Assembly: GCA_036345935.2 (NCBI GenBank) | Contig: JADWOT020000004.1 | Span: forward strand, 4,808,168 to 4,872,167 | Origin: Taenia hydatigena | Taxonomy: Eukaryota > Platyhelminthes > Cestoda > Cyclophyllidea > Taeniidae | Direction: 5' to 3' | DNA length: 64,000 nucleotides | Part shown: positions 5,038-51,201 of the stretch, piece after piece | Position numbering within the stretch: the stretch's first letter is position 1 | Layout: each line of letters starts with the position of its first letter | Made by a program: the position numbers and the translations under genes | Notes under the pieces: generated by a model | The model's database searches: none | The model's input: the letters and a program-made list of their open reading frames with translations, nothing else | What the model was told of the DNA's origin: nothing

Positions 5038-5078
5038 ACGAGACTATCGCACCATGTTTCACCATGCCATGCTTCGCG

Positions 5079-5086: not shown

Positions 5087-5123
5087 GGTGGGATTTTCTC
5101 GCCCTCCTAGTCCACTTGCCAAG

Positions 5124-9637: not shown

Positions 9638-9794
9638 AACTTAGCTGTTTCGCTACCATTAGAATTGCGGATGAATTTGAAGTGCCTCCTATAAGGACGC
9701 GGCTATACGCATGAACAACTTAGATAAAATTACACGCAGATGACTCATATTACCGATAACGAAGAAAAAATGCAACCAACTGCTCTTCCTGCAC

Positions 9795-9997
9795 TATTCC
9801 TTCTTATGTGCACTGGTGCGTCTGCCCGGTTCCATCCACACAATATGAGAAGCGTGTTATAGGATACTGTGACGAAATGTTTTGGAGTACTCGTCCCTTT
9901 TAGGAATTACCCCTTCTCATCTGACTCAGAACTTAGCAGCTGCTGTCAAAATACCCTGGTTAACACAAAATAACTTCTCTGGACTTGAATAAAGGCA
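9795..9997 (-). repeat. Dispersed repeat B, diverged inverted copy
   Basis: Read on the minus strand this resembles 17410-17600 and 1030-1220 of the 2.5-kb block. Shared landmarks are a CTTTATTC stretch, a GTGTTAA stretch, an AGTCA-GA-AAGG stretch, GAGTAC-CCAAAACATTTC, and then ACCAGTG-ACA. Identity is roughly 60-65 percent by eye. It indicates that part of the 2.5-kb block belongs to an older dispersed family. Confidence 0.5.
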
Positions 9998-11912
9998 CCG
10001 ATTTTTACTACTTTTCGGGGACTTGATATCATCTGACTCCAAACAAAATTACGACGGAGCTTTAGTGCCTCTGAACTAAGCTCTGTAAAACTGCACCCTT
10101 ATATCTAGAAGTCATCTCAGGCCAGAGGTCATGCTGGACGAATTCGCCCCTTTGAATGTGGGTTCTTCAGAGGATGCAAGGAATCTCTCGTAGTCCAGAG
10201 CCGTGTCGCAATCCGTGCCTTACGTATTTCCTTTGTGATTCTTAATGCCCTCGCCCCACAATGGAGCATCAACTTCACCCCACCACCACCTGTTTCTGCT
10301 GTGACTGGTCTGCAGGCTAGGGTGACTATAGTGCAATGCATATTTCCCCTTTCGCACTGCACTGTAAAATCGTACCGTTACAGCTCCTCGTACCAGCGTG
10401 CAACAAGACAGTCTATCTCTCGCCTTGCTTTTAAACGTACTATCCAAAGCGCGATGACTCGTTCCCATTGTGGGCGTCCTTGCTATGGGGTGATGGCTGG
10501 TGTGCACCACCATCAAGAAGGTGACAAATAGGTTACGTTAGGTTGCACCCCTCTATCACACATTTTGCTGATCTGGTACAGCGATGACGGATACTCTCAC
10601 TTCTCTGTTCCCCTGCCATTCATGAGAATACGCGGTACAAGACTGCGTCGCTAGAGCCAGGATTCAGTACGCTGGGTGAATGCATCATCACGCTCATTCC
10701 CCTCTAAAATCTTCCCCACATTTCTAACGATTTATGCAAGGCCCTTGCAACCGGACGGTACGACCAAAGTCGCTTAAATGGGCAGAGCAGAAATCGACCC
10801 TGTATTAGATCTGGAGTTGCACGTGCCCCTTAGAACCCGAACAACACAAAGTCCAAATCAGCAGCATGCTCCGGAATATACCTCTCCACGAGGGAAATAT
10901 CACCTAGGTGTACCATGAAATCGCTTTAAGGAAAAGCATGACCAGAGCACTTTCCTATGGGCACTCGAAAGTGATGGCCAACAAGAGAAACCGTCTCATT
11001 GACGCCAAAGTTCGTGGATGAATGCATGGCCTTTGGAATGTGCACTACTGCCACTAAATATGACATTTTTCCATTTGCCAAACGGTTCTATTCTCAACCA
11101 TCTTAAAAGATGACTTCTTCATGAGTGGAACTTAATTGCGTTCGCTGCGAATATGAGGTCATGGAAAATGAAATCACAGACTTACTTGATTGCTCGTATC
11201 AACGCCAAACACTACGTATCAGCTCGACGACCAAATGGTAGTAAATACACAGCATGCCACATTGCCGTTAGTCGTCGTTGCATAACTACTGATAGCAAAA
11301 ATGAGTAGACAACCTCTTCTTCATTTGATGGAAGTGTTGGGCTGGATCAGGTGTCAAACTGCAAAACATGTGTCCTTGCCAGTAGCTGTCCCAGTGTTAG
11401 TAGCGTGATCCCATCTGTGGATGACACACAAGTGCCTCACTGCGTGCCAAGAACATGCAGTTCACACAGCACGACCACTCATGTCTTGCATCCTTTTAAG
11501 CATTAAGCATCGACATTCATCAAATTCTGCACTTTAGGCTAAGGCGCAACATTTATGCCCAGAGGACGGTAGAGATCACATGAAAAGTGTTTGCGTAGGA
11601 TGAAATAATGCATTTATTTTTATTTCTCAAATGATGCCAATCGCACCAACAAAAGTGCGACAATTTCTTGCGTTGAATTAGTTCGGAGTACGGAAATATA
11701 TACGAGCAAAAATAGGCTTTGACTAGCAAAACATCTCATTCTGTCACAGTACATTTGCTTGATTAATTCAACTCAATCCAAACTAACCAACACCTAATTT
11801 GCATAGCCTATGCACTAATGCACACTATTTAATAATTAGTTCAAAGCGGCTGCGGCAGCTGCACTCTCATCATTAATATAAATCATCTTAAGGCGACATT
11901 TCTGACATACTG
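9998..11912. other. Arm sequence without recognised gene
   Basis: Overlapping frames of 77-98 codons on opposite strands at 10129-10531 share no recognisable domain. No RNA gene or clear repeat was seen. The mirrored sequence is at 48927-50841. Confidence 0.45.
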
Positions 11913-12110
11913 ATGAGCCATAAAATAACAGAAGAGGCGCTCGACGATTCCAAGCACGACCGGAGAGCTAGAGATCGACACCTCAGACTGCAGAATCATA
12001 AGGCAACTTTGAATTGCTTCACAAGACGGTTCTCTAACTTCTTGCCTTACATGCCATCTAAGCGCTCAAACACCTATGCCACAGGTGATGATGCCTTACC
12101 CAAAACGTAA
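11913..12110 (+). other. Possible C-terminal coding exon, unknown product
   Basis: A 65-codon open frame (ATG at 11913, TAA at 12108-12110) encodes a hydrophilic, Arg/Lys/Asp-rich sequence ending in a hydrophobic-basic segment and the tail ALPKT. An AG preceded by AATAAC lies at 11930-11934, so the frame could also be a terminal exon entered by splicing. I recognise no family. Composition is more protein-like than neighbouring frames, but nothing else in the area supports a gene. The mirrored copy is at 48729-48926 on the minus strand. Confidence 0.15.
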
Positions 12111-15100
12111 CGGTGTATCATTTCAGCTCACACACACCGCGCCCACACCAATCAACAAGCAAATTGATCACCACCTACGCAAGCCCGTCCAATCCTAACT
12201 TGCCTTTGTTTGCGAAGAAACACAAATAAATAATTAACAGCTTTTAATTTACCACTGATGGAAACTGTACAGAAAGGCACAGCATTGTCGAGACGTCATC
12301 ACAAATTAAAGGAGAGATATAGACATCAGGAGTGGTGATGATTAGAAATTTTAAGAGTTTTGAGCTGCTCTTCATTCGGGTGCTACCAAAAGACACGGTT
12401 GACCAGTCTATTGCCTCCTTTCCCCATCAACGCATGATCATTAGGATCCACACCAACAAGTCGCTGTTGTAACCCGCTTTGGCCAGTGGATCTCACGTCT
12501 GCACTGATCCGCACTATTGGCGTTTGAACCTGCGAAACCATGACAACAAACACGGACTAAGAGAAATCGCAGTAAATACAAAATAAAATGAGGTCTAAAA
12601 TGAGGTGCTGGTTCCAAATTTGTCAAAGGAATCATGATACAGCAGTATCACGTGAAGTGGCAGGCGCTAGCTCACGTTATGCCCTAAGTAGAATTCATTG
12701 ATTAAGAACGCCACAGAACAGCGGCAGCGCCCATACGCAACGAGGTGCGGTGATGAAACGAGTTTCTTGTGAAGGAAGGCGTCCACACTCGTGGACATGC
12801 CTTTCGAGAAAAACAGCCAACTTACTTGACTTTACACGTTATAGATGAATCCGAAACGCGAAAATCCTAACGTCTCATCAGGAGCCTCTTAATGGACTGA
12901 CGTCTACTCTTTGCAAGATAACAGAAGACAAGAGATCCCACCTCGCCAATCAGCCGCCTTTAAACTTCTCCCATAAGCATTAGCTTTACGAGAAAATTGC
13001 AGAAATGAGTAAAATCAACAAAAATAATGCTCAATATCGTCTAGCGCTCAAACACAAGGTTAATGCCCATATGCACTAAAACTTGGGCATATCTATGTCG
13101 GTGGCACCCCCCTCTCCCCCCTCGATACCCAGTGCACCCTTCCGCTGCATGAGACACGCGCATGACAGCAATCAGACTATGCGTATTACGTGTAATACAT
13201 AGGGCGTGCGTGTGCACGTGGACCTAAAGCAGCAGAACGTGTACCACGCATAGTGCAGCTGAACATTGTAAAGTACCCCATTTCTTTCCAATATGAGCAA
13301 CTTCCAACCTAAGCATTACTTGTAGCAATAATGTAATCAAAATCAAGTAATGGTCCGAAAAACACTCGCGACAATGGCGTCAAGGAGGTGCTAATTATAG
13401 CATCCCTGACAGTCAGATGTTCCAACTAAGATGAAGCGATTTCAACAAGCTCACTCACATCAGGCAGGACCGTACAAACGTTCTAGTGCCACATATCGCT
13501 GAAGTGAAGCGGATGAAGGTAAGTAGGCGAGCAGGTCCATGGACAGTGAAATAACCATATTACCTCACCCTCGCCTGTCTGTCTATCCAACCCTCTACCA
13601 CTCAAGTTACTCACACAACAGGTAAATGAATTAGGCGTTAGTAAAGAAACAGATGAAGCTTAACGCTTGCCAGTGCACATTTACCTGTGCCTCCAAAAAC
13701 GTCCACCGACTATCAGCCATCAAGACCATTAATGCGGCTGACCTATGGAAGACGCCAATGCTGCACTTTTGCCCCTCTCCACCACATGTCAGCCAACTAT
13801 TCGACCCGAGGCAAATCACCTAGAATTAATGCTAATTACTACTACGACTAAAAGGAAGGGCGAGGGAGACTGCTCTGGAACTACTACATTGCTACAGCAG
13901 GGAAGGCAAGCAAGTTGGGGTAATTAGTGGTTCGCCTTCGAAGTCATCACCGTGACATTACGCTTCAAGCAAACACTGCATTCACATGTGTTTCGGAGAC
14001 AAACATCCCAGGACGCTTCTTCCGATAATGATAAATTCGCACAGTTTAGTGTCTTAAGCAGGGAACACTAAACAGCCAGATACCATCAAACTTGCATCGT
14101 CAGCAGACGGAGCCAACGAAATTACTTCATAATGAGGAAAGTCTGGATGCGCCTCAAGTGCGCACTAATCCACAACATGATCCTCCGCAAATCCCCAAAA
14201 CAATGCGAAGACGTAAAGCAGCAGTAAGCTTCCTAACCACAAGTAGACCAATTAGCATATACTCATTCAATGCAAGTGTGCACAGCGCCCATGCTACCGT
14301 TCCAACTTGGAATGAGGTATACTTATTTGAAGGCAATGCTTACAGTCCACTGCAGATGCTCACACTTCGTGTGACGCAGATTGCCCCATCTTACCTATCA
14401 ACGTCCAGTGCACTCAATCCGGTAACAACCAATTCAACATACTTGACAATAAATACAAGCAACTTGTCCCAATCAAGCTTTGAATGCCCGTGCATACTCA
14501 TTGAATCCTGATAAATACAATCTTTCCCGTTTGGGCTAGAATGCCAGCACAAGTAATAGGCGAACACACACTACCTATCCTTCAAGACGGAAAACCAAAC
14601 AAGGTGCACGAAATGGATAAATCCAGTCATTTGTATGACTACATATCAATGAGCACAAGTCAGAACTGCCAATGCTTAATGTGTACCAATGTCGAGTGAA
14701 AGCAACAAGACAACTTATGACATCAAACAAGTGGGACATGTGGAAAACTGGAAAGTAAGATGAGGCATAGTGAGTCCTGAACCAGCGCTGAATTCACACT
14801 CAACAGGCAGTGTCTGTAGCTGGTACAAAAGACGGCACTTTGCAGTCAGGCCTCACACCTCATCAAAGCAGGCAAACAGCAAATCGAGACTTTTCAACCG
14901 TGCATAAATGTGCATTTATACGCACCTATGAATTGGCGGGTTCCTTCCTCCACCTATCCACAATCACTGCACCCTCCGACGTTGCCCTTGTTGCCTGCCA
15001 CGTCACGACGCAGGGGTGACTGCACAACACCGCTTGCATCCTACTCTGCAGACCTCCAACAGTTTTGGCAATAACTCATCAGCGAACGCTGACTGCCAAA

Positions 15101-16660
15101 CCGCCCATCAGCGGTGGCACAGCCTCAACGAAATACCTGTCCTCTGCAGGCCCGGAGGAAACATAGATGGCACGTTAATTCATTTATTCAGGCGTCATCA
15201 CTTTCGCAGCAGAATTCGATATTTGCATCCACCCCCAGCTATGCCAACAAACGTTAGGTTCGAATAACATCCTTGTATCTACAGGAACAAGCTGAGGCTT
15301 AAATAAGCCATGTCGATCAAACCAGTAGATAGACATTTAGTGTGACGACGGTGCAAACTGCAAGTTGACATCCCTTCGAAGCAGAATTCTCACGACCTTG
15401 GTCCAAGCTTATTCAGATCGCGCCTGCCAAAGCTGCGGAAGACCACATTCTGTTCGTCAATGAAAGAAAAACACTCAAGCACCCCTTTAGAGAGTGCTGC
15501 AGCTTTATTCGCGTCCAATTAGCACGACAGATTCCAACGATACGGTTGTTGCAACAACTTGGGGAAATGCAGCTGTTGCGCTGGATTTGGGAAAAGGCCT
15601 TGAAAAAGGGTACAAGACTAGTTCGTCAAAGCACAGCATAGAGCATATCAACTTATAAGCCTAAACACACTTGTATCACCGCACAGTGGAGAACAATAGG
15701 GAGGTTACACTTCAAATTCATCACTTTTTGTAAGCTCTCAGGGCTAATTAGATACACTACCACCGACAAGGGCATTCTTGTCGCCGTTAAAGTTTGAACC
15801 ATCGTTGGTGCCGAGTAAAGCCTGAAATTTTACGGTTCTCTTTCACTCTTCAACCAAAAGAGCCTACTTGGCCTAAATACTGCCGTAAACAAAACGCGCA
15901 ACGCACCCACCACATCCGCAGACAATATACTAAATACAACTAATGACCTTGAAACTGCCATAGCGGATGAAAAACTGCTAATTAAATACCTTTCTAAGTT
16001 TAGGAATACTGAATAGCAATAAAAAGCCAAATTCTGTTTTATAGCATTAGCATAAATAACTTATGCAGGCGTATAAAATCAAATGCAGTTCATCGTTAAA
16101 AATAAAACTATACAATTTATGTGTCGATAAAGAATTTGCAGACAATTGAATAAGAGACCAAACACCTTGCAAACTTATCAGCATCTGCGTTAAAAAAAAT
16201 TATGGCCAAATATGCTGCTATGCATACGACACTTGAAGCCCTATCCTTGAGCAGGCTGGTAGTTTTGTTACCAAATTGGAAGTTGAATAGTGAACTGTTG
16301 GCGGAGTACTTTTTTGCTTGTACAACTTGTTTTGGTCAGGGTCACAATGGTGGCCATCTTGCCCAGCTGCGTAGGCTGGCCGCTGAGCCATGCCAGCGGC
16401 TTATTTCCTTCTGCCTGTTGAATATATATACATATTCTACCCTATTATTCTGCCTTCTATTGCCTTCGAGGGAGCCTCGGGACGCTAGAGTCAGCTTTGG
16501 TAAATTCGACGCTTATCACACATGAAGTTCTAACTTCCTCCCGGCCTCTCGCTCCAAGAATGCATCTGAAGTGACATAGATTTACACAATGAGTAAAACT
16601 ATAGTGTTTCAAGACTCCCTTAAGGGCAAAAGAGGGCAAAATATCAGATCAGAATGCATG
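12111..16660. other. Arm sequence without recognised gene
   Basis: The longest frame (14092-14511, 139 codons, TTG start) is Ser/Thr/Pro/Gln-rich with no domain and begins close to a run of other random frames. The stretch holds the arm-mismatch cluster at 12737-13653, the 40-bp motif at 14390-14427, and a hairpin at 16379-16400 (GCCGCTG, 8-nt loop, CAGCGGC). Confidence 0.5.
14390..14427 (+). repeat. Dispersed 40-bp motif, copy 2
   Basis: It shares TTACCTATCAAC-TCCAGT and CTCAATCCGGTA with 7977-8018. The TTACCTATC prefix is shared by these two sites only. The mirror lies at 46412-46449. Confidence 0.6.
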
Positions 16661-19350
16661 CATATATTTAATGGACAAAGGGGACGGGGCTGTGGGCATG
16701 GCTTGGAGATCAGGCCACGCGATTTAGATAATGTGAACACCTATGTGACCGAAACCGAAACCGGCAGTCATGATTAACAAAGCATTGTAAAAGATGCGGC
16801 GCCTTAAAATCCTTTGAACGAATGGGTTAGGACCAAGGGATTTCTGTGATAGCGGGTGGTTGCCTTTCAGTCATTAGTGCACAAACCTCAGTCATGTATT
16901 TGATCGATGAGGCGCCCTTACCAAGTCGTAGATTAATGGTTAAAACAGAGTAGTGTGGTGTGGACAAGTCAGTCACTAGGTGACAGAACGTTTGTCGGGC
17001 AGACCAACTCCTTACTCCAAAGGTGATGATCCTTGCAGTGCAGCTGAAGTGGGTAAATCAGCCTGAATTTGTGTACTAACTCGCCATCTCGAGAGACATT
17101 ATTCCTGAAATTGCGAATCATGGGGGACAGTCGCGAGTGTTTGCATGCAAAGCTGCAATTTTTCTTGCGTTCTTCTTTTGGACGCAGTACACACTCTGCA
17201 GCTTTGTTGGCATCGAGAGACACTCTCCTTTTACCACCTGTAAGCCTCCCTCTTGCTTCACAGAAATCGCACTCCTACCTGCAATCTATGGCGAATGGAA
17301 TGCTCTGAGTGCAAATCAGATAATATCATCTTGATTCGAGAAACAGAAATTATTGTACTCTTAAAATGTATTAAATATTCTTACTTTATTCGTTTATCGA
17401 ATTTCTCCTGTGTTTAAGAAGGCATCTTTGGCAGAGAATTTTAGCTTTCGAGTCAAAAAGGAGTTATTTCTGGAAGGGAGGAGTACACCAAAACATTTCT
17501 TCATGGCATTCTATGGCGCGCATCGCGTGTTGTGCCGGTGGAGTGGAGGTGGATGTACCAGTGAACACAGCAGCTGCAAAGGTTGAAGATGAGAGTGAGG
17601 AGAAGAAGGGACGGGTGAAGAAAGGGCAGTTCGATGAATGTAGCATCACCTTTGCAAAATGGAACTCCCTGCAGTGTCAACACTCGCCTTCCTGACAGCC
17701 GATCAGAACTGATGTGAGGGATGCTGACATGTTCTATAGGCTGCTGAGCATTGTGTAGTGGCAACAAGGAAGATTATTTTGCAGCAATAATTTGTCGAAC
17801 GCAAAAAATTGCCGAGTTTTGCCTCTTGGGCGGTAATGGTCATGTCTTTGGTATTCGGCGGCTGTCATCACTTCTAACAAGTCCATACCCCGGAGAGGTA
17901 ACAAATCACTGCAAAATTGGCATTTCTTTAGACTTCAGGTCAATTCTGTCTACTATAATTTATGTCAAAGACGAGAACCTCATTGAGACAGATCATACTA
18001 TTCTTTAGCAATAAACCTATTTATGCTGGCTGCATCAAGCGTTGGAGGGATGTCACCGCAACACGCATTGGCCAAAATTCATGCGGCACACATGGCAATG
18101 CAAATGCAGGCTCTCCTCTGTTCACCTCTGCCACTCCCGCATTCTGTTATCCTGAATTCAAATCAAGGGGGAGAACTATGCAACCCCAACTGACGATTCT
18201 AGCGATTTGTGTATGTGGGGCTAAGGGGAATGCATGCATCCTCCTTAATTACGGCGCCAATGCACAATCGCGTGCTGCGGTTGATAGTCCTTATCAGCAC
18301 CATCGCAGAGGCTCACGGTGGCTTTGATACTTGTGCAACTTTATCTTGATTCATCCCGTTAACCAGATGGTTTACTTTTAGCAAAGGGGGTAGTATGCGT
18401 CTGGGTGGTTAATAGATGTGTCTAGCTTCACCGCTACCTATCGCATGCTTCACAAAACTTGCCCGAACCATTTTAACGCTTTACCACGATAACATGCTTG
18501 CTTACTTGCCCAGCAACTCACAATGTTTTCTCTTGTTATCGGCTGTGTGCAAGTCTACTTAAGTTGGTTAGAGGTATGGCTGCATCCTTGTGGAGGGCAC
18601 TACGGGTGTTAGCTGCCTGTGATGCGGATCGCCACTCGCCAGCACGGTAGGCTGCTATCCTCTAAGCGCATTAAGTAAATGCTGTGACACACTGGTTGAT
18701 ACTATGTTAGCGGAACAATGAGTTCTCCCAATCCGGTGATTTCAATCACTACCTTGATTCCAGTGTCCATTTGACCACTCCTCCATTTCTAATCAAGCTA
18801 GCTGTCTGACGTAGACACACTGAAGGCCCCGATTACACTCATAGACGCTAAAATTGGAAATTACATGGCGAGATTGTGTTGATGTTGTTGAGCGGAATAA
18901 TGGACGCCACACCTAAAGTATATTCCGAGGCGATGAACCCGCAAAGATTTGCAGCCTAATGTCCACAGAATGTGTGACGCTAATTAACAAAGTGGCAGCC
19001 CAAAAACACATTTCGCGAAGCTGAGTGCGTGGCCCATTTGGACGAAGACAAGAGTAGGCACAGCAGAACACCGAACAGACTCAACATGACTCTAAAACAT
19101 TTGAAGTTGGATGCTGATGAGCTCCAAATTGACCTTAAACACTTTCGGTTCAAACCGAAATTGAATGGAGGTTTCCAAGGAACCGCATATTTATAAATGT
19201 TTACACAGCTTCCTTGAACAGGCAGATTATCGTCTGCCTGAAAGAGAACACAGGCACTGTGCGTGAACAATAAGTGTTCATGCGATAAAGGTAGGTGAAC
19301 GTGTTGTGACGGTTTTCAAATTCAAACTACACATAGGGATAGGAGTCGTG
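16661..19350 (+). repeat. 2.5-kb duplicated block, copy 2 (inside left arm)
   Basis: It is homologous to 264-2789 in the same orientation. The central segment 17761-18748 is nearly identical to copy 1, while the flanks differ by about 10 percent or more. It carries an additional 186 bp (19077-19262) absent from copy 1. Because it sits inside the palindrome, a mirrored third copy lies at 41489-44178 on the minus strand. Confidence 0.9.
19077..19262. other. 186-bp insertion or deletion segment containing four hairpins
   Basis: Copy 1 of the block runs directly from CACCGAAC into GTGAACAATAAG, while copy 2 has 186 bp between. Within it are four consecutive inverted repeats: 19143-19160 (TTTCGGTT, CA, AACCGAAA, perfect), about 19170-19184 (GGTTTCC, AA, GGAACC, one bulge), 19186-19199 (around ATTTATAAAT), and 19219-19240 (CAGGCAGA, 6-nt loop, TCTGCCTG, perfect). 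I see no target-site duplication. Mirror at 41577-41762. Confidence 0.7.
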
Positions 19351-19966
19351 GAGCGATGCCGGTTGGGTAAGAGGCAGTGTTGGTTTGGTGACAGGACAGC
19401 AGCCTAATACGGTGGTACAGGATACAGACACGAGAGGAAGAAAAGGGGGAGAAGGAGGTGAAGTACCCACCCTGAGCAAAGTCACCAGTTCACCAGCTGC
19501 GCATGATACACGCTCCAATCGAGACAGGTTTCATCATGCCGCTTATGAGGACAGCGCATGGCCTGACTCACACTGTCGGCGTTCCCGCTTTCGCCAGCAC
19601 ATACTCGTGTGGGTGGGGTGTGACTGTTGGCATGGCCTATGCATGTAAAGTCACGGTCAATAGAACAACAACTAATCCGGGCTCTCATTTTGCACTTAAC
19701 TGACACGAATACGGCCTAGAATACATGCCGTAGAGTTTTAGTAAAGGTTGATTGAATAAGTGAGCAATAATTTATTTAAGGATACATGGACTGAAGGCCA
19801 GTACGACAGGCCTGCTAAGGATAACCTGTGTCGCATCATGCGTTTTATCTTTCGCACTCCCTTTGCGACTCTACGCCACCAAAATAAACCTACAGTGAGG
19901 ACGCAGATTAATATTGGCAAAGCCTATCTCAAATGTGTAATTTCTAACAACTTTCTGCTTTTTATT
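19351..19966. other. Arm sequence without recognised gene
   Basis: Overlapping short frames on both strands only. No CAP-family exon is present although the neighbouring duplicated block continues from the side of the CAP gene. Confidence 0.45.
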
Positions 19967-20160
19967 GGCTTTACCTTTTGACGTAGCTGAAATATGCTAG
20001 TTAGCAACTTCAATTTTTGTATTCAATGTGAAATTTTTCGAATCACGGGCATTTTATGCCCACAGGTACCACGTGTAATCTTTATGGTCCTTTGAACATA
20101 TTTAGGCGAACGTGGTAAGCAACTCTCGAACATCATCCTCGCGGAGCAAGTTGATCCTAC
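19967..20160 (-). repeat. Dispersed repeat D, 194-bp copy
   Basis: It aligns end to end with 21826-22019 in the same orientation at roughly 85 percent, including the blocks CGAATCACGGGCATT, GCCCACAGG and GCGGAGCAAGTTGATCCTA. It corresponds to the last third of the longer copy at 3391-4105. A TGA interrupts the frame that looks coding in the other copies. Confidence 0.8.
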
Positions 20161-21825
20161 GGTATTTAGGCTACCTTTATAGAACAGTCTTCTGTAACCA
20201 AAATATGTCGGCTTGCTCTGTAGCTGGGTTGTAAAGGGCTTTAAGTGCACAGAATTTTGCTTTGGGACCAATGGGGCATTGTTTTCCCTTAAGGGTCTAA
20301 ATGAGTTAGACCTTTGAGACTTGCAAGCTTAGACTTCTGGGCAATAAACCTTACTAGCATTAGAGTTTGTTTCTATGTTGGTATACAGCGTCTCTATCCG
20401 GCGCGTTCTTAGCCGTAGTTTTGGTAACCGTCGATTCGTAGATAACCCGACATACTGTTCGCCAGCAGGACACACTTGCTCAATGCTTCGGTTCGTCTGT
20501 CGGAGTCTATCAATGCTCCTACGCTGACTGGAATTAAAATGGCAAAATGAAATCAACTGGTGTCATACTGGAACAGCTAAAGCATCTGAGACTGGCTGCG
20601 GATTCATTTATTGCCATGCGCTACTCTCAATGGTCAGCAAATGATGGGGCATTAAAAACGATTGCCAAGGTTAAGAAGTTGTATGCTACTTACCACCTTC
20701 TTAGGCCGATTAAAGAGCTCAATTCAGCATGTGGCGAGGTAATGCTGCAAGCGTCAAATGCTCAGTGGCACACGTGTCAAGTTTTCTGTTTCATAATTGC
20801 ATCAGGTTTGCCATGTTACGATTAAATGTGAAGGTTCAAGACGGTCGGATGAACGATCCAACGGGCAGCACCTGGAGACGTTAGTCATTAAGCCGAGATC
20901 TGGCTTGGTAACTGACTTCCTTATTTGTTTTGGTATTTCACAGATATGTCAGAAAATCGTCACGAATAACTTGGGCAACACCACACATTTCTTCTCGCAT
21001 GACCCCATTGCCACCATGCCACGTAACCAACAGTTTGCAGCTTGACTCACCACTTGTACAGCTCACATTATTTTTAGGCACTGAACAATGCTTACCACTG
21101 AAATTTGCTGTTCAATGCTTGAAGCAATACGCTGACTTGCCGTCGATTAATCTTAATTCCCCTTCATTTACCATCCGGGTTGAACGACTGATCCGTCATG
21201 TCTCAACTGCCTACCGCGGTAGCACTCCAGGAAGCATCTCTATGGCTGCAGTTTAGAGATGAACAACCATTGTTTGCTAGTAAGTCAACATGAAGCCTGA
21301 ACTGAAAATTTCACTTACGAGGCCCAAACTCTTCTGCTCTATAATTCGGTGTAGTAAGTTACGCATCACACTCCATGCGCATGTAGTTTCCGTGCGCACC
21401 CAAAAGTGGTTTCTAACTTGTGTAGCGTGCCATTTTGAGGAAATAGAGTGAGCTGCTTATTTGTCCATCCTCTTTTGGCACTAGTCTTAACAACTTTCAC
21501 AGATTATTGCACCAGGACGGACCGCCTTCTGACTACTTCAACCCGAAGATCAGCAGGAGTAACCTTTGGTCATGCGCAAGCATGGGTGAACCACCGAACT
21601 TAAAAAACGTGAAGCGGATTTGTCAGCAAACCTTCCTTTTTTGGTCTGGTCCTTTCTTCACAGGCGTATCCTCTGCCAGCCACGCTTAACCAACCATAAG
21701 GAACTGCAAAATCCGCTTTAATGCCACAGCGCGGGTTTGATCTTCATCACTACTAGTCCACAACCCTGTCGCACGTAGGTAGCATATTGTGCAATATCTT
21801 GGTGAAATACTAAGAATAATGAGAA
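20161..21825. other. Arm sequence without recognised gene; tandem palindromes at 20286-20312
   Basis: Frames at 20547-20825 and 20930-21256 have no recognisable domain. CCCTTAAGGG (20286-20295) overlaps a perfect 7-bp hairpin, GGTCTAA (20294-20300), ATGAG, TTAGACC (20306-20312). No known element is assigned. Confidence 0.45.
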
Positions 21826-22569
21826 GGCTTTACCTTTTGACGTAGCTAAAATATGCCACTTAGCGACTTAAATTTTTGTATTCAATGTAAAATTCTTCGA
21901 ATCACGGGCATTCTATGCCCACAGGCACCACGTGTAATATTTATGGTCTTTTGAAAGCATCTAGGCGAAGTGGGTATACAACGCTCGAAGATCGTCCTCG
22001 CGGAGCAAGTTGATCCTATAGTGCCGATAGAATCCATTCCATAACCCTCCATCAATATGCCATCAACCCACCACTTGTCTAAGCCAATTAGGATGTCCCA
22101 GAACATTCAGCTTTCTTGCGTTAGCAATCGTCGCAGAAAAGGGAGGAAGACTGAAGGAAATCCTGTACAGTGCGTACCTTACATAAATATTTTATTTGAA
22201 ATCCATAATCAGTTGTTTGTGTTGGCATTCGAATCAAAATCAAGGTCGTAGAGACGCCGTACTAATGGTGTTTGATAAATATACAGGCGCTACTACCATT
22301 AATCGGCTTCTATTCTATCTGCGGTCCCATCCTACTGCCCAAAATAAAGTCCGTCACATGATTCGGGAAAAGGCTTAGAAGTGTGCGATGGATATTTTGA
22401 TTTCAAATACTCAAAATTATCCAGTGTTTATTAGTTTCGGGCCATCAAATTTGAAAATGGGTCATAAGACGATCGCGTACCCCGCTGCTTCTCATTGATA
22501 GGGCAAAATGCATTCCGACGCAGTGGATCGTGTTTGTATAATTTGCCAATTTAACGGCATTCAATTCTG
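21826..22569 (-). repeat. Dispersed repeat D, long copy
   Basis: Read on the minus strand it aligns over about 0.7 kb with plus-strand 3391-4105, and its 194-bp terminal part aligns with 19967-20160. Mirror at 38270-39013 and a third version near 62.48-63.22 kb. The D family thus occurs in both orientations relative to the left flank. Confidence 0.7.
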
Positions 22570-24780
22570 CAGTACCTCATCATTGCTCATACCGATATCA
22601 CAACCTTAAATTACACGAAATCTTATTTTTGCTTTTGTTTTCTGACAAAATGCCTTATGCGACTGGTTTGCCTTCGCCCCCATCCAATACATCTTTTTAT
22701 TCGCATTACTGTTTTCCACGTTGCCACTTACTTGACCTTAACAACGCTCTTGTTTCTCACTATGATGGAAATCAATTCAGCACGATTAATTATATTTGTG
22801 TTTCCTGATCCATAATAAATGTCTGCTTTTCATAGCCCAGTAGCGTCGAAACGGAGAGAGCACGAGTGGGTATTCTGCAACCGCACTAAAAGTTATTGTC
22901 CTTAACAAATCCATTAACCAAATTAAACACTGTGCAAAAATATTGCACTAAAGTCCTACATCCAGTGTAATGTTGTGACTGGCCCTCCCGTTGTCCCTGC
23001 TTTAAAACTTTTGTTCAGAAATGCGTATGCGTCAAAATCATGCGAAAATTTGTGTACCAAGGAGAAATCCGACTTCCAGTGCGATGCTTTAGACACCGTT
23101 GTGCAGCCGAGGACAAGAATGATTTTATTGCTGTGGATTTAAGTGCAGCCATTGTCCGATGACTCGCCTCCCTTCTTCTTTAGTCCCAAAAACTTTCATA
23201 AGTTGACTTAATGTTTCCCTACCTCAACTTACTTATACCAAGACATGGGACCCTCATTGCCCATAGTGTTCACCATGACCTGCATCACCTTCCGGTACTG
23301 ACTTTCAGACAACCTATTTGTTCTAAGGCAAATATTCCAACAAGCTCGCTTAACCCGAAGTCGTCAGTGTATACACGGAAAGGCGCTGAGATGCATAGTG
23401 AACTTGCTGGTTGTGGTGCTAACGTGTTGTGATAGTGGCAATTTGACAATGAGATGTCGCGTATGCTTAGATTGCATTAACCACATGAGGTGTGTCACGT
23501 TAATAAGAGCAATTCTTAGCAAGTCTGCTTATTGCACCTCAGCGAAAACGATTTCAGCTTAAATAAATGGAAAGAGGTGCCTATACTGCTCGTTTGACTT
23601 GGGATAAAAGCTTATTTGGAGGTAAGGACTATACATTACTGCAAAATTCATGCGGGTCACGGCGTATGTTGCGGTGTCGTACCCGTCAACATCCAGCGTG
23701 TTCAATCTGGTAGCAGTAACTGCAGTATACTGTAAAATCAGTGCTACAAAAACGTGTTCCAGTCGTATCTATATATTTATGTATGTATATTTATGCAGCT
23801 GATGCCAAGGAAACCTAATCGAAGAGAAGCGCCCTCAAATGCAGTTGTCTATGCTGAACTACTCGATTGCCAGAACCGATTCGGAATATTGATTAAAAGC
23901 TACTGTTGTTGTTGTTGTTCATGTTGTTGGGCAAGCAAGGTAATAACCCTTTAAAAGCGTTGGCTACGTTTGCGCATTTTTGGCTATTGTAACCTCAGAT
24001 TCTTCTGCAGCCATTATCAAGAGGATAAGTATAAATTGGCGAATTCAGGAGAAGGGGCACGGTTTTTAGTAATGGCTGCTGAATGTTCAGGGACGCGGCA
24101 GCGTAATGCACCTGAGCCCAGTCGATCTTGATTGGTAGGTCGTGTAGATGTCTTAGCACATCAAAGTGGTCAGAACCAAGTAGGGTCTTTTTCTTGTGAT
24201 TTATTACGCTGAGGGGAGCCTTCGTCGTTGGAGGATACACCCATAGTAGCCCATCTCTCAAACAGTGCTGGATTGAGCAATGTGATGGATGGATGAGGTG
24301 CCAAGTCGTCACAGTCGCAGTTTCCAGGGTGCCAATAGATGTTGATGTCGGTGCGACCATTTATGATGCACTAAAGCCATCGGTTCCCGTGGTTGTAGGA
24401 AAGAACACAGCTCGAAAAGTGCCAGTTGCTCTCTGATTTATCATCCGATTTTCATATAGATAATTGCTGTAACCAAAGTTGATGTGCATAATCTTTGACC
24501 CTATTAAGCTCACTTCCGAATAACAAAAGCAGAGGACTTAAATGCAGTTATTCTTATCAACGGCAGGTAAGAGTGAGTGGATGTGATTTAAATCGGAGTA
24601 CCAAAGAAGAATCTAAAATGCTCCAAATCACCAAGGGCCAATGGAGCATTTACTACTCAAGTGTAAATTAACATACCCAACATAAAGCGTCAGTAATAGA
24701 TTTGGGAGTTTCAGAGTGGTCTCCTGTTACATTTTGGACTTTTGGGCTTTAGCTGTCTCTGTTGCACTACATCACATTGT
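22570..24780. other. Arm sequence without recognised gene
   Basis: Only short frames. It contains the third 40-bp motif and a GTT microsatellite at about 23904-23928. A 121-codon minus-strand frame (23995-24360, CTG/GTG-type start region) shows no family. Confidence 0.45.
23681..23720 (+). repeat. Dispersed 40-bp motif, copy 3
   Basis: GTCAACATCCAG followed by TTCAATCTGGTAGCAGT aligns with the 7977-8018 core with four or five changes. The mirror is at 37119-37158, with a third version near 61.35 kb. Confidence 0.55.
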
Positions 24781-24819
24781 CAGGTGAGGGTTTTTTAAAA
24801 CATGTTTCACATGGGTAAA

Positions 24820-24935
24820 GGTGAAGTGGGTGAGTGAATGAAAGAAGGGTAAGCAGGATCAGGTTGCTCCCTCCTCTCGAAGTTATTGCCACTAGCACTG
24901 CTTGTTTGCTCATGCCTCCTCTTAATCTGCAGTGA
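24820..24935 (-). repeat. Repeat E, inverted relative to 27370-27490
   Basis: On the minus strand it reads GCATGAGCAAACA-GCA, then GCTTACTCTCCTTTC-like, then a pyrimidine-rich CACTCACC-ACTTCA stretch ending at CCATG. The same order appears on the plus strand at 27370-27490. Identity is moderate. The pair forms an inverted repeat about 2.4 kb apart inside the arm. Confidence 0.55.
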
Positions 24936-26244
24936 GCTGTAGTGAGCGTGAGAGAAATGCTATATTTCTTCATGCCTTTTGTTTTCGACTCTCTCACGAT
25001 TACTCATCCTGCGACGGGACCATGAGCATTCCCGAACATTATTAACGCGTCATTGCCTGCGACTGCTTTGCATCCCACAGAGGTGACACGTCCAACTTGC
25101 ATAATCCCCAATCAAACAAAGTTAACTGATTTCAACCCACTCAAGCGCTAAGTATGCTGCTTCCCTACTTAACCACACCATTCACTATCCATCATGCCTA
25201 GCTGGCTGACAATTAAATTTCGATCTCCAAAACCGTTTCGAACTTTTATCACCGGGAACGAAGCGGGATTCTTGGGTCAGACGCGCCTAGCCCGTCTGGA
25301 TTATTTAAATAACACTGCACTTAACTTATTTTATTTTGTGTTTCGGCTGTCAGCAATCTACGTGTACGTATGCGGCCTCTGCAAAATGACTCCAAAACAT
25401 GGCAGTACACGAGACAGAAATGTCATCTTTACAACCAGCATAAAATACGTAAGGTATGAGCACCAAATCCAAGTCTATAGTACGAAAGCTTGCACACTTA
25501 CATTCATACTGCTTAAAAATTTGGCTGATAGATGCAAAGGTGGGAAAATGGGAAATGGTTTGATCATTAGACACTGGATCGAAATGTGCGTGGGAGAAGG
25601 TTAGAACACTATGTGACCAGTCAGGCGGGCGCAATCGCTGACTTTATTTCTATCACGATTTGAGAGTGCCACAAACGGAGAAACGAGTAAAAGTTGGCTA
25701 GGTAATCTGTTTGTGTAGATGCACACGTAGGACGGAAACTTTGCTTATCGTTGCAGTGGTTGCTATGCCTAGCAGTGTGCGGTCAATTTTTCCATAGGAT
25801 GTTACACACTTCCTTGAATTCTGTCTCATAGTTGGTGTGCTTATTCGAGTAGGGATCCTGATTTGCAATCCATCATCTTGCAAGGAGGTCTTTACCACAT
25901 CGTCAAAATACTCGGCTGACATAACTTGCCCCTGCAAGTGTGCTTCGACAAACGCATAAAAATGACACTGAGCATAATTCGAAGTGACTAGGCTGGGCTT
26001 GGTGCAGACTTGAGGAATCCTGGAACTAGTTGCAATGACTACCACTTGGAGTGTAATGTGGATGCATTGGCACCACTGAGATGGTTTAACGCAGCAATAA
26101 TGCTAATTGGCATTTGCATTCGTTTGAAATTTCAACTGCCTTACGCATCGACGTTACTGAGGGACCTATCTACTGATCATCACTGCCATGACAACAACGA
26201 CGAGCGAGTGATGGAATGAGAGGACACCGACATAGGACTCAACA
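24936..26244. other. Arm sequence without recognised gene
   Basis: A 136-codon frame (25194-25604) and an antisense 94-codon frame overlap, and neither carries a recognised motif. The tandem copy near 59455-59865 keeps the frame, but the divergence is too low to test for constraint. Confidence 0.4.
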
Positions 26245-26725
26245 ATGAAGTGTTGAAGAACGTTAGAGGCGAGGCGGCAAGAGTGTCGGATCGCAGGGAG
26301 GGTGAAGTCCACGAGAGTAGACAATGTGTGCGAAGTAGCCCATCCCCTAAGCCGACGTGCACGCGTGGCTTTACGAGCACACCCAAACTTCTATCGCTCT
26401 CAGCAATGCAACTCTGTGTGTGCGTGTGTGCACAACAATTACCGCTGGCTCGTAGAATGGCAGCGACTTTTGTCGTCAAAGTTAAAACTGTGCTTGTGAA
26501 AGCGCATGAGCATATCGACCTAGACACTGGGCCGTTTTGCAAACATTACACACTTGGGTCCTTCATGCTAAATTATGCCATTCACCATCTTGCTCAGTAC
26601 CATTTTCATGCACTTGCAGCACAAATTGCGCTGCATTGCAGAGAGCAGGAGACGGTCCACTTCGCCTCACATCAGTTGTTCACTCTTGTGGAATTGACCC
26701 GATACTTTTGCTAACTCAGGTCAAC
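26245..26725 (+). repeat. Repeat C, element with internal inverted halves
   Basis: The left half (GGGTGAAGTCCACGAGAGTA onward at about 26298, then GCGAAGTAGCCCAT) recurs as an imperfect reverse complement at about 26640-26705 (minus: GGGTCAATTCCACAAGAGTG, then GGCGAAGTGG). Related single halves lie at 27960-28075 and 29150-29310. The 154-codon frame spanning the element is matched by a 120-codon antisense frame, as expected of a long imperfect inverted repeat and not of a gene. Confidence 0.6.
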
Positions 26726-27369
26726 CTTCCTCTTCCCATTTATCACCCCATATCGCTCTTCCACTGGCTGCTGCACCAACTTTTGGCCACTAGATGCATC
26801 GAAGCCGTCCCATTTGTCATTTATCATGTCAAATTCTCGCTTTACAAACAGAGGACATGATTAGCAGTCCACATTACATGATGTGAACTGCAGTACTTAT
26901 ATTGACTTAGTTAAAGTGGCATGCCTGCCTGTCTGGAGCACGGGAATAGCGTCATATGCTGAGGAAAACAGGGGGTGGAAATCGACTTCTCCCAATCGAA
27001 AAGAATGTTGAGCGCTTAAACGTCCGAAAGAGTCAGCAGTGTTTAATTCTAAATGGCGGAGCATGACCTCCATCAGGACAATTTTCCGTCCACCAAGCAA
27101 ATGAAATTGACAGTGATGACGAACAATTGAGTTTTAGTGCCTGAGCTAAATACCACTAGTTGATGTTGATTTGATTAAGAAATAGACGATATAAATGCTT
27201 TCACATTACAACACACAGAGCAATCACGAGTAATGACAGCTCGCTAATCCATCCAGGTGATTATGATTCCAACTCAGGTTGACTAGTCGTGAGACAGGCC
27301 AATTCGGTGTGTGTGTGAGGAATTGTGGCATCGCTCACATGCTTACTTTTGCCCGTTCATAGAGCACTT

Positions 27370-27490
27370 GGAAGCATGAGCAAACAGCACCAACTTTAGA
27401 AAGAGCAAATCCAAGCCTGCTTACTCTCCTTTCACCCACTCACTAATTCATTCACATTCATCCATGTTAGTCGGCAAGTTGAAAGCTCCT
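27370..27490 (+). repeat. Repeat E, forward copy
   Basis: Plus-strand partner of 24820-24935. The TTACTCTCCTTTCACCCACT block and the CATTCACATTCATCCATG end align with the other copy. The mirror on the right arm is at 33349-33469. Confidence 0.55.
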
Positions 27491-27938
27491 TACTGACAAT
27501 TAGTTCAATTCATTCGCGCATACCACTTGTTTCTTCTCAGTAACAATCAGATATTGCGCAAATTTACGCAGCAGTATGCACGACGTGGCAAGCATTCACT
27601 CAGCCCTTAACAAGTTGGAAGCCAGCAGCAATGACTACCTCACAATTGCACAATGTAGCCAAATCGATACCATCCGGTAACTTTAGGAAACGCGGTAAGC
27701 CTACTCGGCAATCATGCCAGTCCCAAGACTCATCTTATGCAAAAGTTAACGTGATTGAGGATCATATCCACCGATCTTAGTCCCAATGTCGATGGCTGCC
27801 GACTGATAAGGTGCCTTCTGTGTGTTCTGTAACGTGAAGTGGATGTAGTACCCAATGGTGAGATGGTACATTGTAGAAAGTGGGAAGAAAAAAGTTATCG
27901 TGAGGAGGAGAAAGCGTTGAATTACAAAACAGGCACAG

Positions 27939-47600: not shown

Positions 47601-50600
47601 GTTCTGCTGCTTTAGGTCCACGCGCACACGCACACCTGGTCTATTACACGTAATACGCATAGTCTGATTGCTGTCATGCGCGTGTCTCATGCAGCGGAAG
47701 GGTGCACTGGGTATCGAGGGGGGAGAGGGGGGTGCCACCGACATAGATATGCCCAAGTTTTAGTGCATATGGGTATTAACCTTGTGTTTGAGCGCCAGAC
47801 GATATTGAGCATTATTTTTGTTGATTTTACTCATTTCTGCAATTTTCTCGTAAAGCTAATGCTTATGGGAGAAGTTTAAAGGCGGCTGATTGGCGAGGTG
47901 GGATCTCTTGTCTTCTGTTATCTTGCAAAGAGTAGACGTCAGTCCATTAAGAGGCTCCTGATGAGACGTTAGGATTTTCGCGTTTCGGATTCATCTATAA
48001 CGTGTAAAGTCAAGTAAGTTGGCTGTTTTTCTCGAAAGGCATGTCCACGAGTGTGGACGCCTTCCTTCACAAGAAACTCGTTTCATCACCGCACCTCGTT
48101 GTGTATGGGCGCTGCCGCTGTTCTGTGGCGTTCTTAATCAATGAATTCTACTTAGGGCATAACGTGAGCTAGCGCCTGCCACTTCACGTGATACTGCTGT
48201 ATCATGATTCCTTTGACAAATTTGGAACCAGCACCTCATTTTAGACCTCATTTTATTTTGTATTTACTGCGATTTCTCTTAGTCCGTGTTTGTTGTCATG
48301 GTTTCGCAGGTTCAAACGCCAATAGTGCGGATCAGTGCAGACGTGAGATCCACTGGCCAAAGCGGGTTACAACAGCGACTTGTTGGTGTGGATCCTAATG
48401 ATCATGCGTTGATGGGGAAAGGAGGCAATAGACTGGTCAACCGTGTCTTTTGGTAGCACCCGAATGAAGAGCAGCTCAAAACTCTTAAAATTTCTAATCA
48501 TCACCACTCCTGATGTCTATATCTCTCCTTTAATTTGTGATGACGTCTCGACAATGCTGTGCCTTTCTGTACAGTTTCCATCAGTGGTAAATTAAAAGCT
48601 GTTAATTATTTATTTGTGTTTCTTCGCAAACAAAGGCAAGTTAGGATTGGACGGGCTTGCGTAGGTGGTGATCAATTTGCTTGTTGATTGGTGTGGGCGC
48701 GGTGTGTGTGAGCTGAAATGATACACCGTTACGTTTTGGGTAAGGCATCATCACCTGTGGCATAGGTGTTTGAGCGCTTAGATGGCATGTAAGGCAAGAA
48801 GTTAGAGAACCGTCTTGTGAAGCAATTCAAAGTTGCCTTATGATTCTGCAGTCTGAGGTGTCGATCTCTAGCTCTCCGGTCGTGCTTGGAATCGTCGAGC
48901 GCCTCTTCTGTTATTTTATGGCTCATCAGTATGTCAGAAATGTCGCCTTAAGATGATTTATATTAATGATGAGAGTGCAGCTGCCGCAGCCGCTTTGAAC
49001 TAATTATTAAATAGTGTGCATTAGTGCATAGGCTATGCAAATTAGGTGTTGGTTAGTTTGGATTGAGTTGAATTAATCAAGCAAATGTACTGTGACAGAA
49101 TGAGATGTTTTGCTAGTCAAAGCCTATTTTTGCTCGTATATATTTCCGTACTCCGAACTAATTCAACGCAAGAAATTGTCGCACTTTTGTTGGTGCGATT
49201 GGCATCATTTGAGAAATAAAAATAAATGCATTATTTCATCCTACGCAAACACTTTTCATGTGATCTCTACCGTCCTCTGGGCATAAATGTTGCGCCTTAG
49301 CCTAAAGTGCAGAATTTGATGAATGTCGATGCTTAATGCTTAAAAGGATGCAAGACATGAGTGGTCGTGCTGTGTGAACTGCATGTTCTTGGCACGCAGT
49401 GAGGCACTTGTGTGTCATCCACAGATGGGATCACGCTACTAACACTGGGACAGCTACTGGCAAGGACACATGTTTTGCAGTTTGACACCTGATCCAGCCC
49501 AACACTTCCATCAAATGAAGAAGAGGTTGTCTACTCATTTTTGCTATCAGTAGTTATGCAACGACGACTAACGGCAATGTGGCATGCTGTGTATTTACTA
49601 CCATTTGGTCGTCGAGCTGATACGTAGTGTTTGGCGTTGATACGAGCAATCAAGTAAGTCTGTGATTTCATTTTCCATGACCTCATATTCGCAGCGAACG
49701 CAATTAAGTTCCACTCATGAAGAAGTCATCTTTTAAGATGGTTGAGAATAGAACCGTTTGGCAAATGGAAAAATGTCATATTTAGTGGCAGTAGTGCACA
49801 TTCCAAAGGCCATGCATTCATCCACGAACTTTGGCGTCAATGAGACGGTTTCTCTTGTTGGCCATCACTTTCGAGTGCCCATAGGAAAGTGCTCTGGTCA
49901 TGCTTTTCCTTAAAGCGATTTCATGGTACACCTAGGTGATATTTCCCTCGTGGAGAGGTATATTCCGGAGCATGCTGCTGATTTGGACTTTGTGTTGTTC
50001 GGGTTCTAAGGGGCACGTGCAACTCCAGATCTAATACAGGGTCGATTTCTGCTCTGCCCATTTAAGCGACTTTGGTCGTACCGTCCGGTTGCAAGGGCCT
50101 TGCATAAATCGTTAGAAATGTGGGGAAGATTTTAGAGGGGAATGAGCGTGATGATGCATTCACCCAGCGTACTGAATCCTGGCTCTAGCGACGCAGTCTT
50201 GTACCGCGTATTCTCATGAATGGCAGGGGAACAGAGAAGTGAGAGTATCCGTCATCGCTGTACCAGATCAGCAAAATGTGTGATAGAGGGGTGCAACCTA
50301 ACGTAACCTATTTGTCACCTTCTTGATGGTGGTGCACACCAGCCATCACCCCATAGCAAGGACGCCCACAATGGGAACGAGTCATCGCGCTTTGGATAGT
50401 ACGTTTAAAAGCAAGGCGAGAGATAGACTGTCTTGTTGCACGCTGGTACGAGGAGCTGTAACGGTACGATTTTACAGTGCAGTGCGAAAGGGGAAATATG
50501 CATTGCACTATAGTCACCCTAGCCTGCAGACCAGTCACAGCAGAAACAGGTGGTGGTGGGGTGAAGTTGATGCTCCATTGTGGGGCGAGGGCATTAAGAA

Positions 50601-51201
50601 TCACAAAGGAAATACGTAAGGCACGGATTGCGACACGGCTCTGGACTACGAGAGATTCCTTGCATCCTCTGAAGAACCCACATTCAAAGGGGCGAATTCG
50701 TCCAGCATGACCTCTGGCCTGAGATGACTTCTAGATATAAGGGTGCAGTTTTACAGAGCTTAGTTCAGAGGCACTAAAGCTCCGTCGTAATTTTGTTTGG
50801 AGTCAGATGATATCAAGTCCCCGAAAAGTAGTAAAAATCGGTGCCTTTATTCAAGTCCAGAGAAGTTATTTTGTGTTAACCAGGGTATTTTGACAGCAGC
50901 TGCTAAGTTCTGAGTCAGATGAGAAGGGGTAATTCCTAAAAGGGACGAGTACTCCAAAACATTTCGTCACAGTATCCTATAACACGCTTCTCATATTGTG
51001 TGGATGGAACCGGGCAGACGCACCAGTGCACATAAGAAGGAATAGTGCAGGAAGAGCAGTTGGTTGCATTTTTTCTTCGTTATCGGTAATATGAGTCATC
51101 TGCGTGTAATTTTATCTAAGTTGTTCATGCGTATAGCCGCGTCCTTATAGGAGGCACTTCAAATTCATCCGCAATTCTAATGGTAGCGAAACAGCTAAGT
51201 T
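32620..51201 (-). repeat. Right arm of giant inverted repeat (18,582 bp)
   Basis: Reverse complement of 9638-28219; every feature of the left arm is found here at 60839 minus its position on the opposite strand. Base differences at 22531, 23492 and 23534 (left numbering) are cases where the left arm agrees with the tandem copy near 61.5-62.5 kb and the right arm differs. At the inner end the right arm agrees instead with the tandem copy near 55.9-56.1 kb. Frames at 47225-47413, 47414-47653 and 47676-47879 exist only in this arm, because the left arm carries the clustered substitutions there. No gene is called. Confidence 0.97.

What the first reader, a model, noticed from the sequence alone, without database searches (positions are those of the whole stretch)
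9638..51201. Giant palindrome: two 18.6-kb near-identical arms around a 4.4-kb spacer
Complementary positions add to 60839 from end to end without any indel, and only about two dozen base differences were found by reading. In animal genomes such arms are usually either very young or kept alike by arm-to-arm gene conversion, as in sex-chromosome palindromes of other animals. Here the arms look non-genic, so selection for duplicated genes is not an obvious cause. The alternative is misassembly.
Basis: partly seen in the sequence, partly recalled or inferred. Interest (0 to 1): 0.85.

Follow-up and report, generated by a model that had tools for sequence, protein, structure and literature searches.

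The report
Megabase ladder of mirror-image DNA repeats
The giant palindrome is really in the assembly, and it is one rung of a megabase-scale stretch of mirror-image repeats, probably in a tapeworm, whose paired arms seem to be copied onto each other; raw reads are still needed to rule out an assembly effect.

Summary
It belongs to repeats scattered over C4:2.99-5.43 Mb with two alternating mirror centres. S is one: 9 full-length probe matches, 6 with full inverted arm ends on both sides, 2 with one arm cut to 281 bp, 1 with one arm seen. X is the other: five inverted pairs of the CAP-gene flank at near-constant spacing. The edge at 51201 is junction J, read as a deletion of about 36 kb.

Eight S copies share breakpoints to within a base or two. 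Arms within one palindrome differ by 1.09% on average, against 2.27% between palindromes; the true pairing is the best of 720. In 4 of 6 palindromes the arms differ less than S does from its nearest copy; e and h do not fit. This favours arm-to-arm gene conversion.

No reads were available. Some copies in different contigs are suspiciously identical, so 99.86% may be inflated by assembly. The species (probably Taenia hydatigena) is inferred. New variant of a known kind.

The parts
9638..28219 (+). left arm of the S-centred palindrome (bL)
28220..32619 (+). spacer S, 4,400 bp; a 4,000-bp probe of it has 9 full-length matches in the genome, all on C4
32620..51201 (-). right arm (bR), reverse complement of the left arm with 26 mismatches
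51201..51202 (.). junction J: arm position 1 joined to arm position 18302 of the next unit; read as a deletion of about 36 kb (size inferred from the intact neighbour units); sets the outer end of the palindrome
   Evidence: the same junction, inverted, at C4:4913116/7
51202..51481 (+). arm end of about 281 bp left of the next S copy
51482..55876 (+). second S copy (Sc), 97.5% to S
   Evidence: C4:4859649-4864043
55878..56773 (-). start of the arm right of Sc, cut by the single N at 56774
56775..57117 (-). S fragment (S 1-339, 93.6%) beside the N
   Evidence: C4:4864942-4865284
57187..64000 (-). further arm copy (cR), continuing past the window
1..2946 (.). right part of X, the spacer of the neighbouring X-centred palindrome (C4:4806551-4811113)
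2947..8660 (+). right arm of the X-centred palindrome; its mirror copy is C4:4800836-4806550 (98.5%)
5185..6359 (+). exon pieces of a CAP-domain gene (weak Pfam CAP hits for two of three pieces scanned, below the curated cut-off)
8714..8830 (+). 5S-rRNA-like sequence, 69.8 bits (best 5S match listed for this genome 108.5 bits)
12737..13653 (.). cluster of 15 arm differences; the left arm equals copy eL at all 15, the right arm is a mosaic of other copies
28064..28183 (.). cluster of 5 arm differences next to S; at 4 of them the left arm shares its allele with cL and dR (the same side of S), at 28096 the right arm alone differs

Best explanation
The palindrome is one rung of a long alternately inverted segmental-duplication array. 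A piece [CAP/5S flank - arm] stands in inverted orientation on both sides of S, giving arm>S<arm. A second mirror centre, X, links the flanks of neighbouring palindromes, giving a repeating dimer of about 60 kb. Amplification, probably by unequal exchange, spread copies over about 2.4 Mb of C4. After the palindromes had separated, the two arms of several of them went on being copied onto each other by gene conversion, most completely in this palindrome and in g. Deletions such as junction J trim units and set the present outer edge at 51201. Shown: shared breakpoints and recurrent layout in the assembly; arms on average more alike within a palindrome than between; the sequence at J. Inferred: unequal exchange, gene conversion as the homogenising process, the deletion reading of J, which arm came first, and that true arm identity is close to the assembled 99.86%.
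For: Recurrent S layout: of 9 full-length probe matches to S (all 35 candidates scored), 6 have full arm-end matches inverted on both sides, 2 have one side cut to 281 bp, 1 shows one arm only (40 of 119 candidates scored). Eight S copies have the arm-S breakpoints within a base or two of ours; three of these stretches were fetched from elsewhere on C4 and hold no N. Recurrent X layout: five inverted CAP-flank pairs with gaps of 8.6-8.7 kb (40 of 347 candidates scored) and four 5S(-)/5S(+) pairs 16.2-16.4 kb apart. Of 11 neighbouring arm copies spaced 28.5-32.5 kb, 10 alternate strand (range chosen after seeing the positions; 10 of 15 at 27-33 kb, 19 of 26 under 50 kb). Homogenisation: arm divergence within palindromes a, b, e, f, g, h is 1.45, 0.26, 1.49, 0.57, 0.18 and 2.59% (mean 1.09), against 2.27% for opposite sides and 2.13-2.24% for the same side of different palindromes, and 2.19% for S; no other of the 720 pairings is as low (2 to 8 of 720 are as low in four sub-ranges). 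In a, b, f and g the arms differ less than their S differs from its nearest copy (1.62, 2.18, 2.01, 0.61%). The tree pairs bL+bR (99/96) and fL+fR (100/99); a clade of all start-side arms is rejected.
Against: No reads: collapse or homogenisation by read correction and polishing cannot be excluded. Only b and f have arms that are reciprocal nearest relatives; in a and g one arm has a closer relative elsewhere, in e and h neither arm is nearest to its partner. Arms of e (1.49%) and h (2.59%) differ more than their S from its nearest copy (0.75 and 1.62%), against homogenisation there. Arm positions 1-9000 of bL are identical to eL in another contig; hL equals aL over about 2 kb although 1.3 Mb away; dL and gR differ by 0.04%. 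In b and g the differences of the inner arm sit mostly in the last 281 bp beside S (1.78 and 1.43%, against 0.05 and 0% in arm 16300-18300), where paired short reads anchor best. The contigs with J (X and reversed Y) are collinear and 99.65% alike over 18.8 kb, so one locus may be present twice. The AU test assumes a tree without recombination. After mending two facts on rechecking (nearest relatives; the C1 relative, which is less clean than first written) confidence was lowered from 0.62 to 0.60.
Confidence: 0.6

Rival explanations
1. Assembly effect: the arms exist as diverged array copies, but read correction, consensus and polishing merged them, or two haplotypes were placed side by side, so the 99.86% identity (and perhaps this particular arm pairing) is inflated or false.
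For: Identical stretches in different contigs (bL/eL 0 differences in arm 1-9000) or far apart (hL/aL, dL/gR); a single N with a duplicated 533-bp overlap at 56774; collinear, 99.65% identical X and reversed-Y segments sharing J; differences beside S retained in b and g. If the species is T. hydatigena, the published route was 33x PacBio with Canu, Pilon and SSPACE plus a Hi-C version (PMC8384839, passages).
Against: The inverted layout around S recurs at eight S copies and the X layout at five places. The assembly keeps many inner-arm copies apart at 0.5-3%, and an indiscriminate merging process has no reason to favour arms of the same palindrome. A missed sequencing adapter would give a palindrome with almost no spacer, not a 4.4-kb non-palindromic one (recalled).
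Confidence: 0.22
2. Young inverted duplication without conversion: this palindrome arose very recently and its arms have had no time to diverge.
For: Only 26 differences and no indels.
Against: The same breakpoints are shared with seven other S copies whose S differs by 2.2-2.5% from this S, so the layout predates their separation; homogenisation or replacement of an arm is then needed.
Confidence: 0.08
3. Exchange among array units in general (unequal crossing-over, block duplication) rather than arm-to-arm conversion makes some arms alike by chance of which block was copied.
For: dL/eR 99.2%, dL/gR 99.96%, aL/hL 100% over about 2 kb: arms of different palindromes can be nearly identical; e and h arms do not pair.
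Against: The true pairing is the best of 720, and b and f arms are reciprocal nearest neighbours.
Confidence: 0.1

Closest known systems
Human Y palindromes and mammalian X palindromes with arm-to-arm gene conversion (PMC3723533: abstract parts and passages; PMC8981503: start of abstract in a listing)
   Same: Long inverted arms with more than 99% identity around a non-palindromic spacer; arms more alike than their relatives elsewhere.
   Different: Here there are many copies in a ladder with two kinds of centre; no known sex chromosome is involved (tapeworms are hermaphrodites, recalled); no protein domain was found in the arm ORFs tested.
Maintained inverted repeats in Caenorhabditis (PMC1803023, first of four parts of the text read)
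   Same: Inverted-repeat structure kept while the sequence diverges; not presented as a sex-chromosome feature in the part read.
   Different: The examples read have intergenic arms of 124-160 bp plus gene pairs; here each arm is at least 18.6 kb and the structure recurs over megabases.
Mouse Yq ampliconic array of repeated palindromic units (recalled, no call)
   Same: A series of large units that contain palindromes.
   Different: As recalled, the unit is far larger, lies on a Y chromosome and carries expressed gene families.

Membership tests
Ampliconic palindrome maintained by arm-to-arm gene conversion | Inverted arms longer than about 10 kb, at least 99% identical, around a spacer that is not itself inverted | tested here: met
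   18,582 bp, 99.86%, 4,400-bp spacer
Ampliconic palindrome maintained by arm-to-arm gene conversion | Arms of one palindrome more alike than equivalent arms elsewhere although the layout is older | tested here: met
   for this palindrome (b) met: 0.26% against 0.74% or more to any other arm compared, and S 2.2% from its nearest copy; over the six palindromes met on average, not in e and h
Ampliconic palindrome maintained by arm-to-arm gene conversion | Presence in raw long reads, with two arm copies by depth | not testable with these tools
   no reads available
Ampliconic palindrome of a sex chromosome | Location on a sex chromosome | not tested
   species inferred only; taeniids are hermaphrodites (recalled)
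Ampliconic palindrome of a sex chromosome | Genes in the arms, typically testis-expressed | tested here: inconclusive
   no Pfam domain over its curated cut-off in 20 ORFs; CAP gene pieces only in the outer flank; no expression data
DNA transposon or foldback element with long terminal inverted repeats | Transposase or other mobile-element protein between or in the repeats | tested here: inconclusive
   none among 20 ORFs; shorter ORFs and target-site duplications were not examined
Sequencing palindrome from a missed adapter | Arms meet with little or no spacer, and breakpoints are not shared with other places (recalled) | tested here: not met
   4.4-kb spacer; breakpoints shared within a base or two at 8 S copies

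The most novel reading that the evidence does not exclude
A self-homogenising two-centre palindrome ladder several megabases long on a chromosome of a hermaphrodite without sex chromosomes: arms convert, spacers can flip (S occurs in both orientations), and inverted pairs of a CAP-family gene near X are kept nearly identical, so that palindromes would here serve a multigene family rather than a non-recombining sex chromosome.
Probability: 0.3. Interest if true: 0.75.

Novelty: new variant of a known kind. Interest (0 to 1): 0.52.

Why it matters
Long palindromes kept alike by gene conversion are usually explained by the lack of a recombination partner on sex-limited chromosomes. A ladder of them on an ordinary chromosome of a hermaphrodite would show that arm-to-arm conversion does not need that setting. 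Many parallel palindromes in one genome also give a natural replicate set for measuring conversion. If the species is T. hydatigena, it bears on why this genome is larger than those of its relatives: the published survey counted blocks of five or more genes as segmental duplications (PMC8384839, passages), which would miss arms without genes.

Tried and rejected
Chance: excluded. Missed-adapter palindrome: rejected because of the spacer and shared breakpoints. Mobile element with long inverted ends: no supporting protein domain in 20 ORFs, not fully tested. Tandem Repeats Finder and ARAGORN listed nothing in the window. CAP flank as single-copy control: rejected. Counting J genome-wide by pattern did not complete. 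Searches for CAP and HSP70 in the genome did not complete. Literature: searches (Taenia, inverted repeat, segmental duplication, genome; autosomal palindrome, gene conversion, inverted repeat) found no paper; (tapeworm, palindrom, gene conversion) listed two, on a retrotransposon and on centromere base composition, not opened; one search was too loose to say anything. Subscription journals are mostly not held.

First thought of and weakened: that the C1 relative (L032) shows the state before the inverted duplication. The arm runs straight into S there, and the homology to the end of S stops at S 4399, but three pieces of arm 16.3-16.9 kb occur in the same 10 kb, two of them inverted and some kilobases behind the S end, so polarity is only suggested.

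Rows left out: pieces under 250 bp were dropped, so hL lacks most of arm 18316-18582 and the h value for 18302-18582 rests on few sites; c and d were left out of the pairing test because one arm is only 281 bp; three second pieces of split copies were merged, giving 36 places from 39 C4 rows, and the four rows on other contigs were not used.
Full report
OBSERVATION. Pairing each position i with 60839-i gives two arms, 9638-28219 and 51201-32620, 18,582 bp, no indel and 26 mismatches, around a 4,400-bp spacer S at 28220-32619. The 26 differences are not spread evenly: 15 lie at 12737-13653, 5 at 28064-28183 and 6 elsewhere.

IT IS NOT ALONE. Self-comparison of the window shows that 51201-56773 repeats 27939-33516 (97.7%) in direct orientation and that 57187-64000 repeats 32987-39789 (97.3%). 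A single N at 56774 joins pieces with 533 bp in common. The window is G000:C4:4808168-4872167 of a 306-Mb assembly. A 1-kb arm probe has 43 match rows, 39 of them on C4 between 2.99 and 5.43 Mb, on both strands; only 40 of 639 candidates were scored. I fetched 200 kb around the window and mapped it in units of flank, arm and S. The palindrome lies in one stretch without N of about 100 kb, 4764949-4864940. The 200 kb hold five S copies, named a-e here (b is ours), each with inverted arm sequence on its two sides, in c and d on one side only 281 bp.

TWO MIRROR CENTRES. S centre: a 4,000-bp probe of S has 9 full-length matches, all on C4 (all 35 candidates scored). Six have full arm-end matches inverted on both sides, two have one arm cut to 281 bp, and one (4755220) shows only one arm, though only 40 of 119 candidates were scored. 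In the eight copies read base by base the arm ends meet S within a base or two of the same places. Another pair of inverted arm ends at C4:3056991/3062844 is 88% like ours. S stands on the plus strand in four copies and on the minus strand in five. X centre: the CAP flank occurs in five inverted pairs with gaps of 8.6-8.7 kb (3021782-/3033958+, 3082806-/3094109+, 4657398-/4669685+, 4800896-/4813168+, 5407527-/5419529+; 40 of 347 candidates scored). Four 5S-like pairs are 16.2-16.4 kb apart, minus then plus. Arm copies spaced 28.5-32.5 kb alternate strand in 10 of 11 cases, a range chosen after looking; in 27-33 kb it is 10 of 15, under 50 kb 19 of 26. The repeat is read as a dimer of about 60 kb: X - flank - arm > S < arm - flank - X, with many irregular places.

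WHY THE PALINDROME ENDS WHERE IT DOES. At 51201 the right arm stops at arm position 1 and jumps to arm position 18302 of the next unit (junction J). Other units run on from arm position 1 into the CAP flank (bL itself, aR, cR, eR), so J reads as a deletion of about 36 kb (size inferred). J is seen twice, at C4:4859368/9 and inverted at 4913116/7, within an 18.8-kb stretch 99.65% alike. Only about one base is shared at the break (by eye), which would fit end joining.

RELATIVES OUTSIDE THE ARRAY. On C1 (L032) the arm end runs directly into the start of S at about 75% identity, and a piece of the end of S stops at S 4399. That would fit an older arm-S order to which the inverted arm was added. 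But three pieces of arm 16.3-16.9 kb lie in the same 10 kb, two inverted and some kilobases behind the S end, so the polarity is only suggested. On C4:14.64 Mb (L033) only S 1254-4065 is found, without an arm.

HOMOGENISATION. Three further palindromes (f, g, h) were fetched; none of the three stretches holds an N. Over arm 16300-18582, arms of the same palindrome differ by 1.45 (a), 0.26 (b, ours), 1.49 (e), 0.57 (f), 0.18 (g) and 2.59% (h), mean 1.09. Opposite sides of different palindromes differ by 2.27%, same sides by 2.13-2.24%, and S by 2.19%. Of the 720 possible pairings the true one has the lowest mean; in four sub-ranges 2, 4, 8 and 2 of 720 are as low. In the tree bL pairs with bR (99/96) and fL with fR (100/99), and a clade of arms on the start side of S is rejected (under a model without recombination). 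If the palindrome layout is older than the separation of the copies, as shared breakpoints imply, arms within a palindrome should be at least as diverged as S is from its nearest copy. They are less diverged in a, b, f and g (1.45, 0.26, 0.57, 0.18 against 1.62, 2.18, 2.01, 0.61%), but not in e and h (1.49 and 2.59 against 0.75 and 1.62%). Arm-to-arm gene conversion in part of the palindromes is the natural reading (inferred). The X-centred neighbour shows a similar picture: 86 difference columns over 5.7 kb, only 9 of them in the inner 4.1 kb (window 2947-7066), which holds the CAP exon pieces.

AGAINST. Without reads the identity cannot be trusted to the last tenth of a percent. bL and eL, in different contigs, are identical over arm 1-9000. 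hL equals aL over about 2 kb at 1.3 Mb distance and dL/gR differ by 0.04%. Only b and f arms are reciprocal nearest relatives; in a and g one arm is closer to another palindrome, in e and h both are. In b and g nearly all differences of the compared stretch lie within 281 bp of S, where short paired reads can be anchored. The X contig and the reversed Y contig are collinear around J, as two haplotypes of one locus would be. In the difference cluster at 12737-13653 the right arm matches a mosaic of other copies, which could be ectopic conversion or mispolishing. On the other side, the assembly keeps many inner-arm copies apart at 0.5-3%.

CONTENT. No Pfam domain reached its curated cut-off in 20 of the longer ORFs of arm, spacer and flank. 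The flank carries CAP exon pieces (Pfam CAP at E 0.002 and 0.0066 for two of three pieces scanned, below the cut-off). The b and a copies beside X encode four identical pieces; the cR copy has stops and a frame break. The 5S-like sequence scores 69.8 bits, against 108.5 for the best 5S listed (47 of 10195 candidates scored), so it is probably a relic.

SPECIES. No COX1 was found to confirm it. [quoted passage not shown] gene-poor arms like these would escape that measure.

COMPARISON. The nearest known kinds are sex-chromosome palindromes with arm-to-arm conversion (PMC3723533: mean conversion tract 2,068 bp, inversions rare; abstract and passages) and maintained inverted repeats in Caenorhabditis (PMC1803023, first of four parts read). 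It works like these; membership cannot be completed without reads. The ladder with two alternating centres on a probably non-sex chromosome is the new element.

Noticed in passing
window 56774: Single N joins two pieces that share 533 bp (56244-56776 and 57187-57719, 97.9%), with an S fragment between: looks like a scaffolder join of overlapping contig ends.
   Followed up: partly
C4:4846111-4864940 and 4926375-4907544: Collinear, 99.65% identical, both holding junction J, but with the neighbouring S in opposite orientation: duplicated haplotype or recent duplication with a spacer flip.
   Followed up: partly
C7:3303541/3307277 and C8:1776368/1780128: CAP-flank relatives at about 80% also sit as close inverted pairs on other contigs.
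   Followed up: no
C7:0.56-11.55 Mb, C3:11.48-11.73 Mb, C8:1.21-1.24 Mb: Many dispersed 5S copies; inverted pairs 26.4 kb apart on C3 and C8, possibly further palindrome arrays.
   Followed up: no
window 268-2699 and 16664-19076: A 2.4-kb stretch of X is a 92% copy of an arm segment.
   Followed up: no
C4:4890965-4891836: CAP copy in unit c carries in-frame stops and a frame break, while the b and a copies have identical exon pieces without stops.
   Followed up: partly
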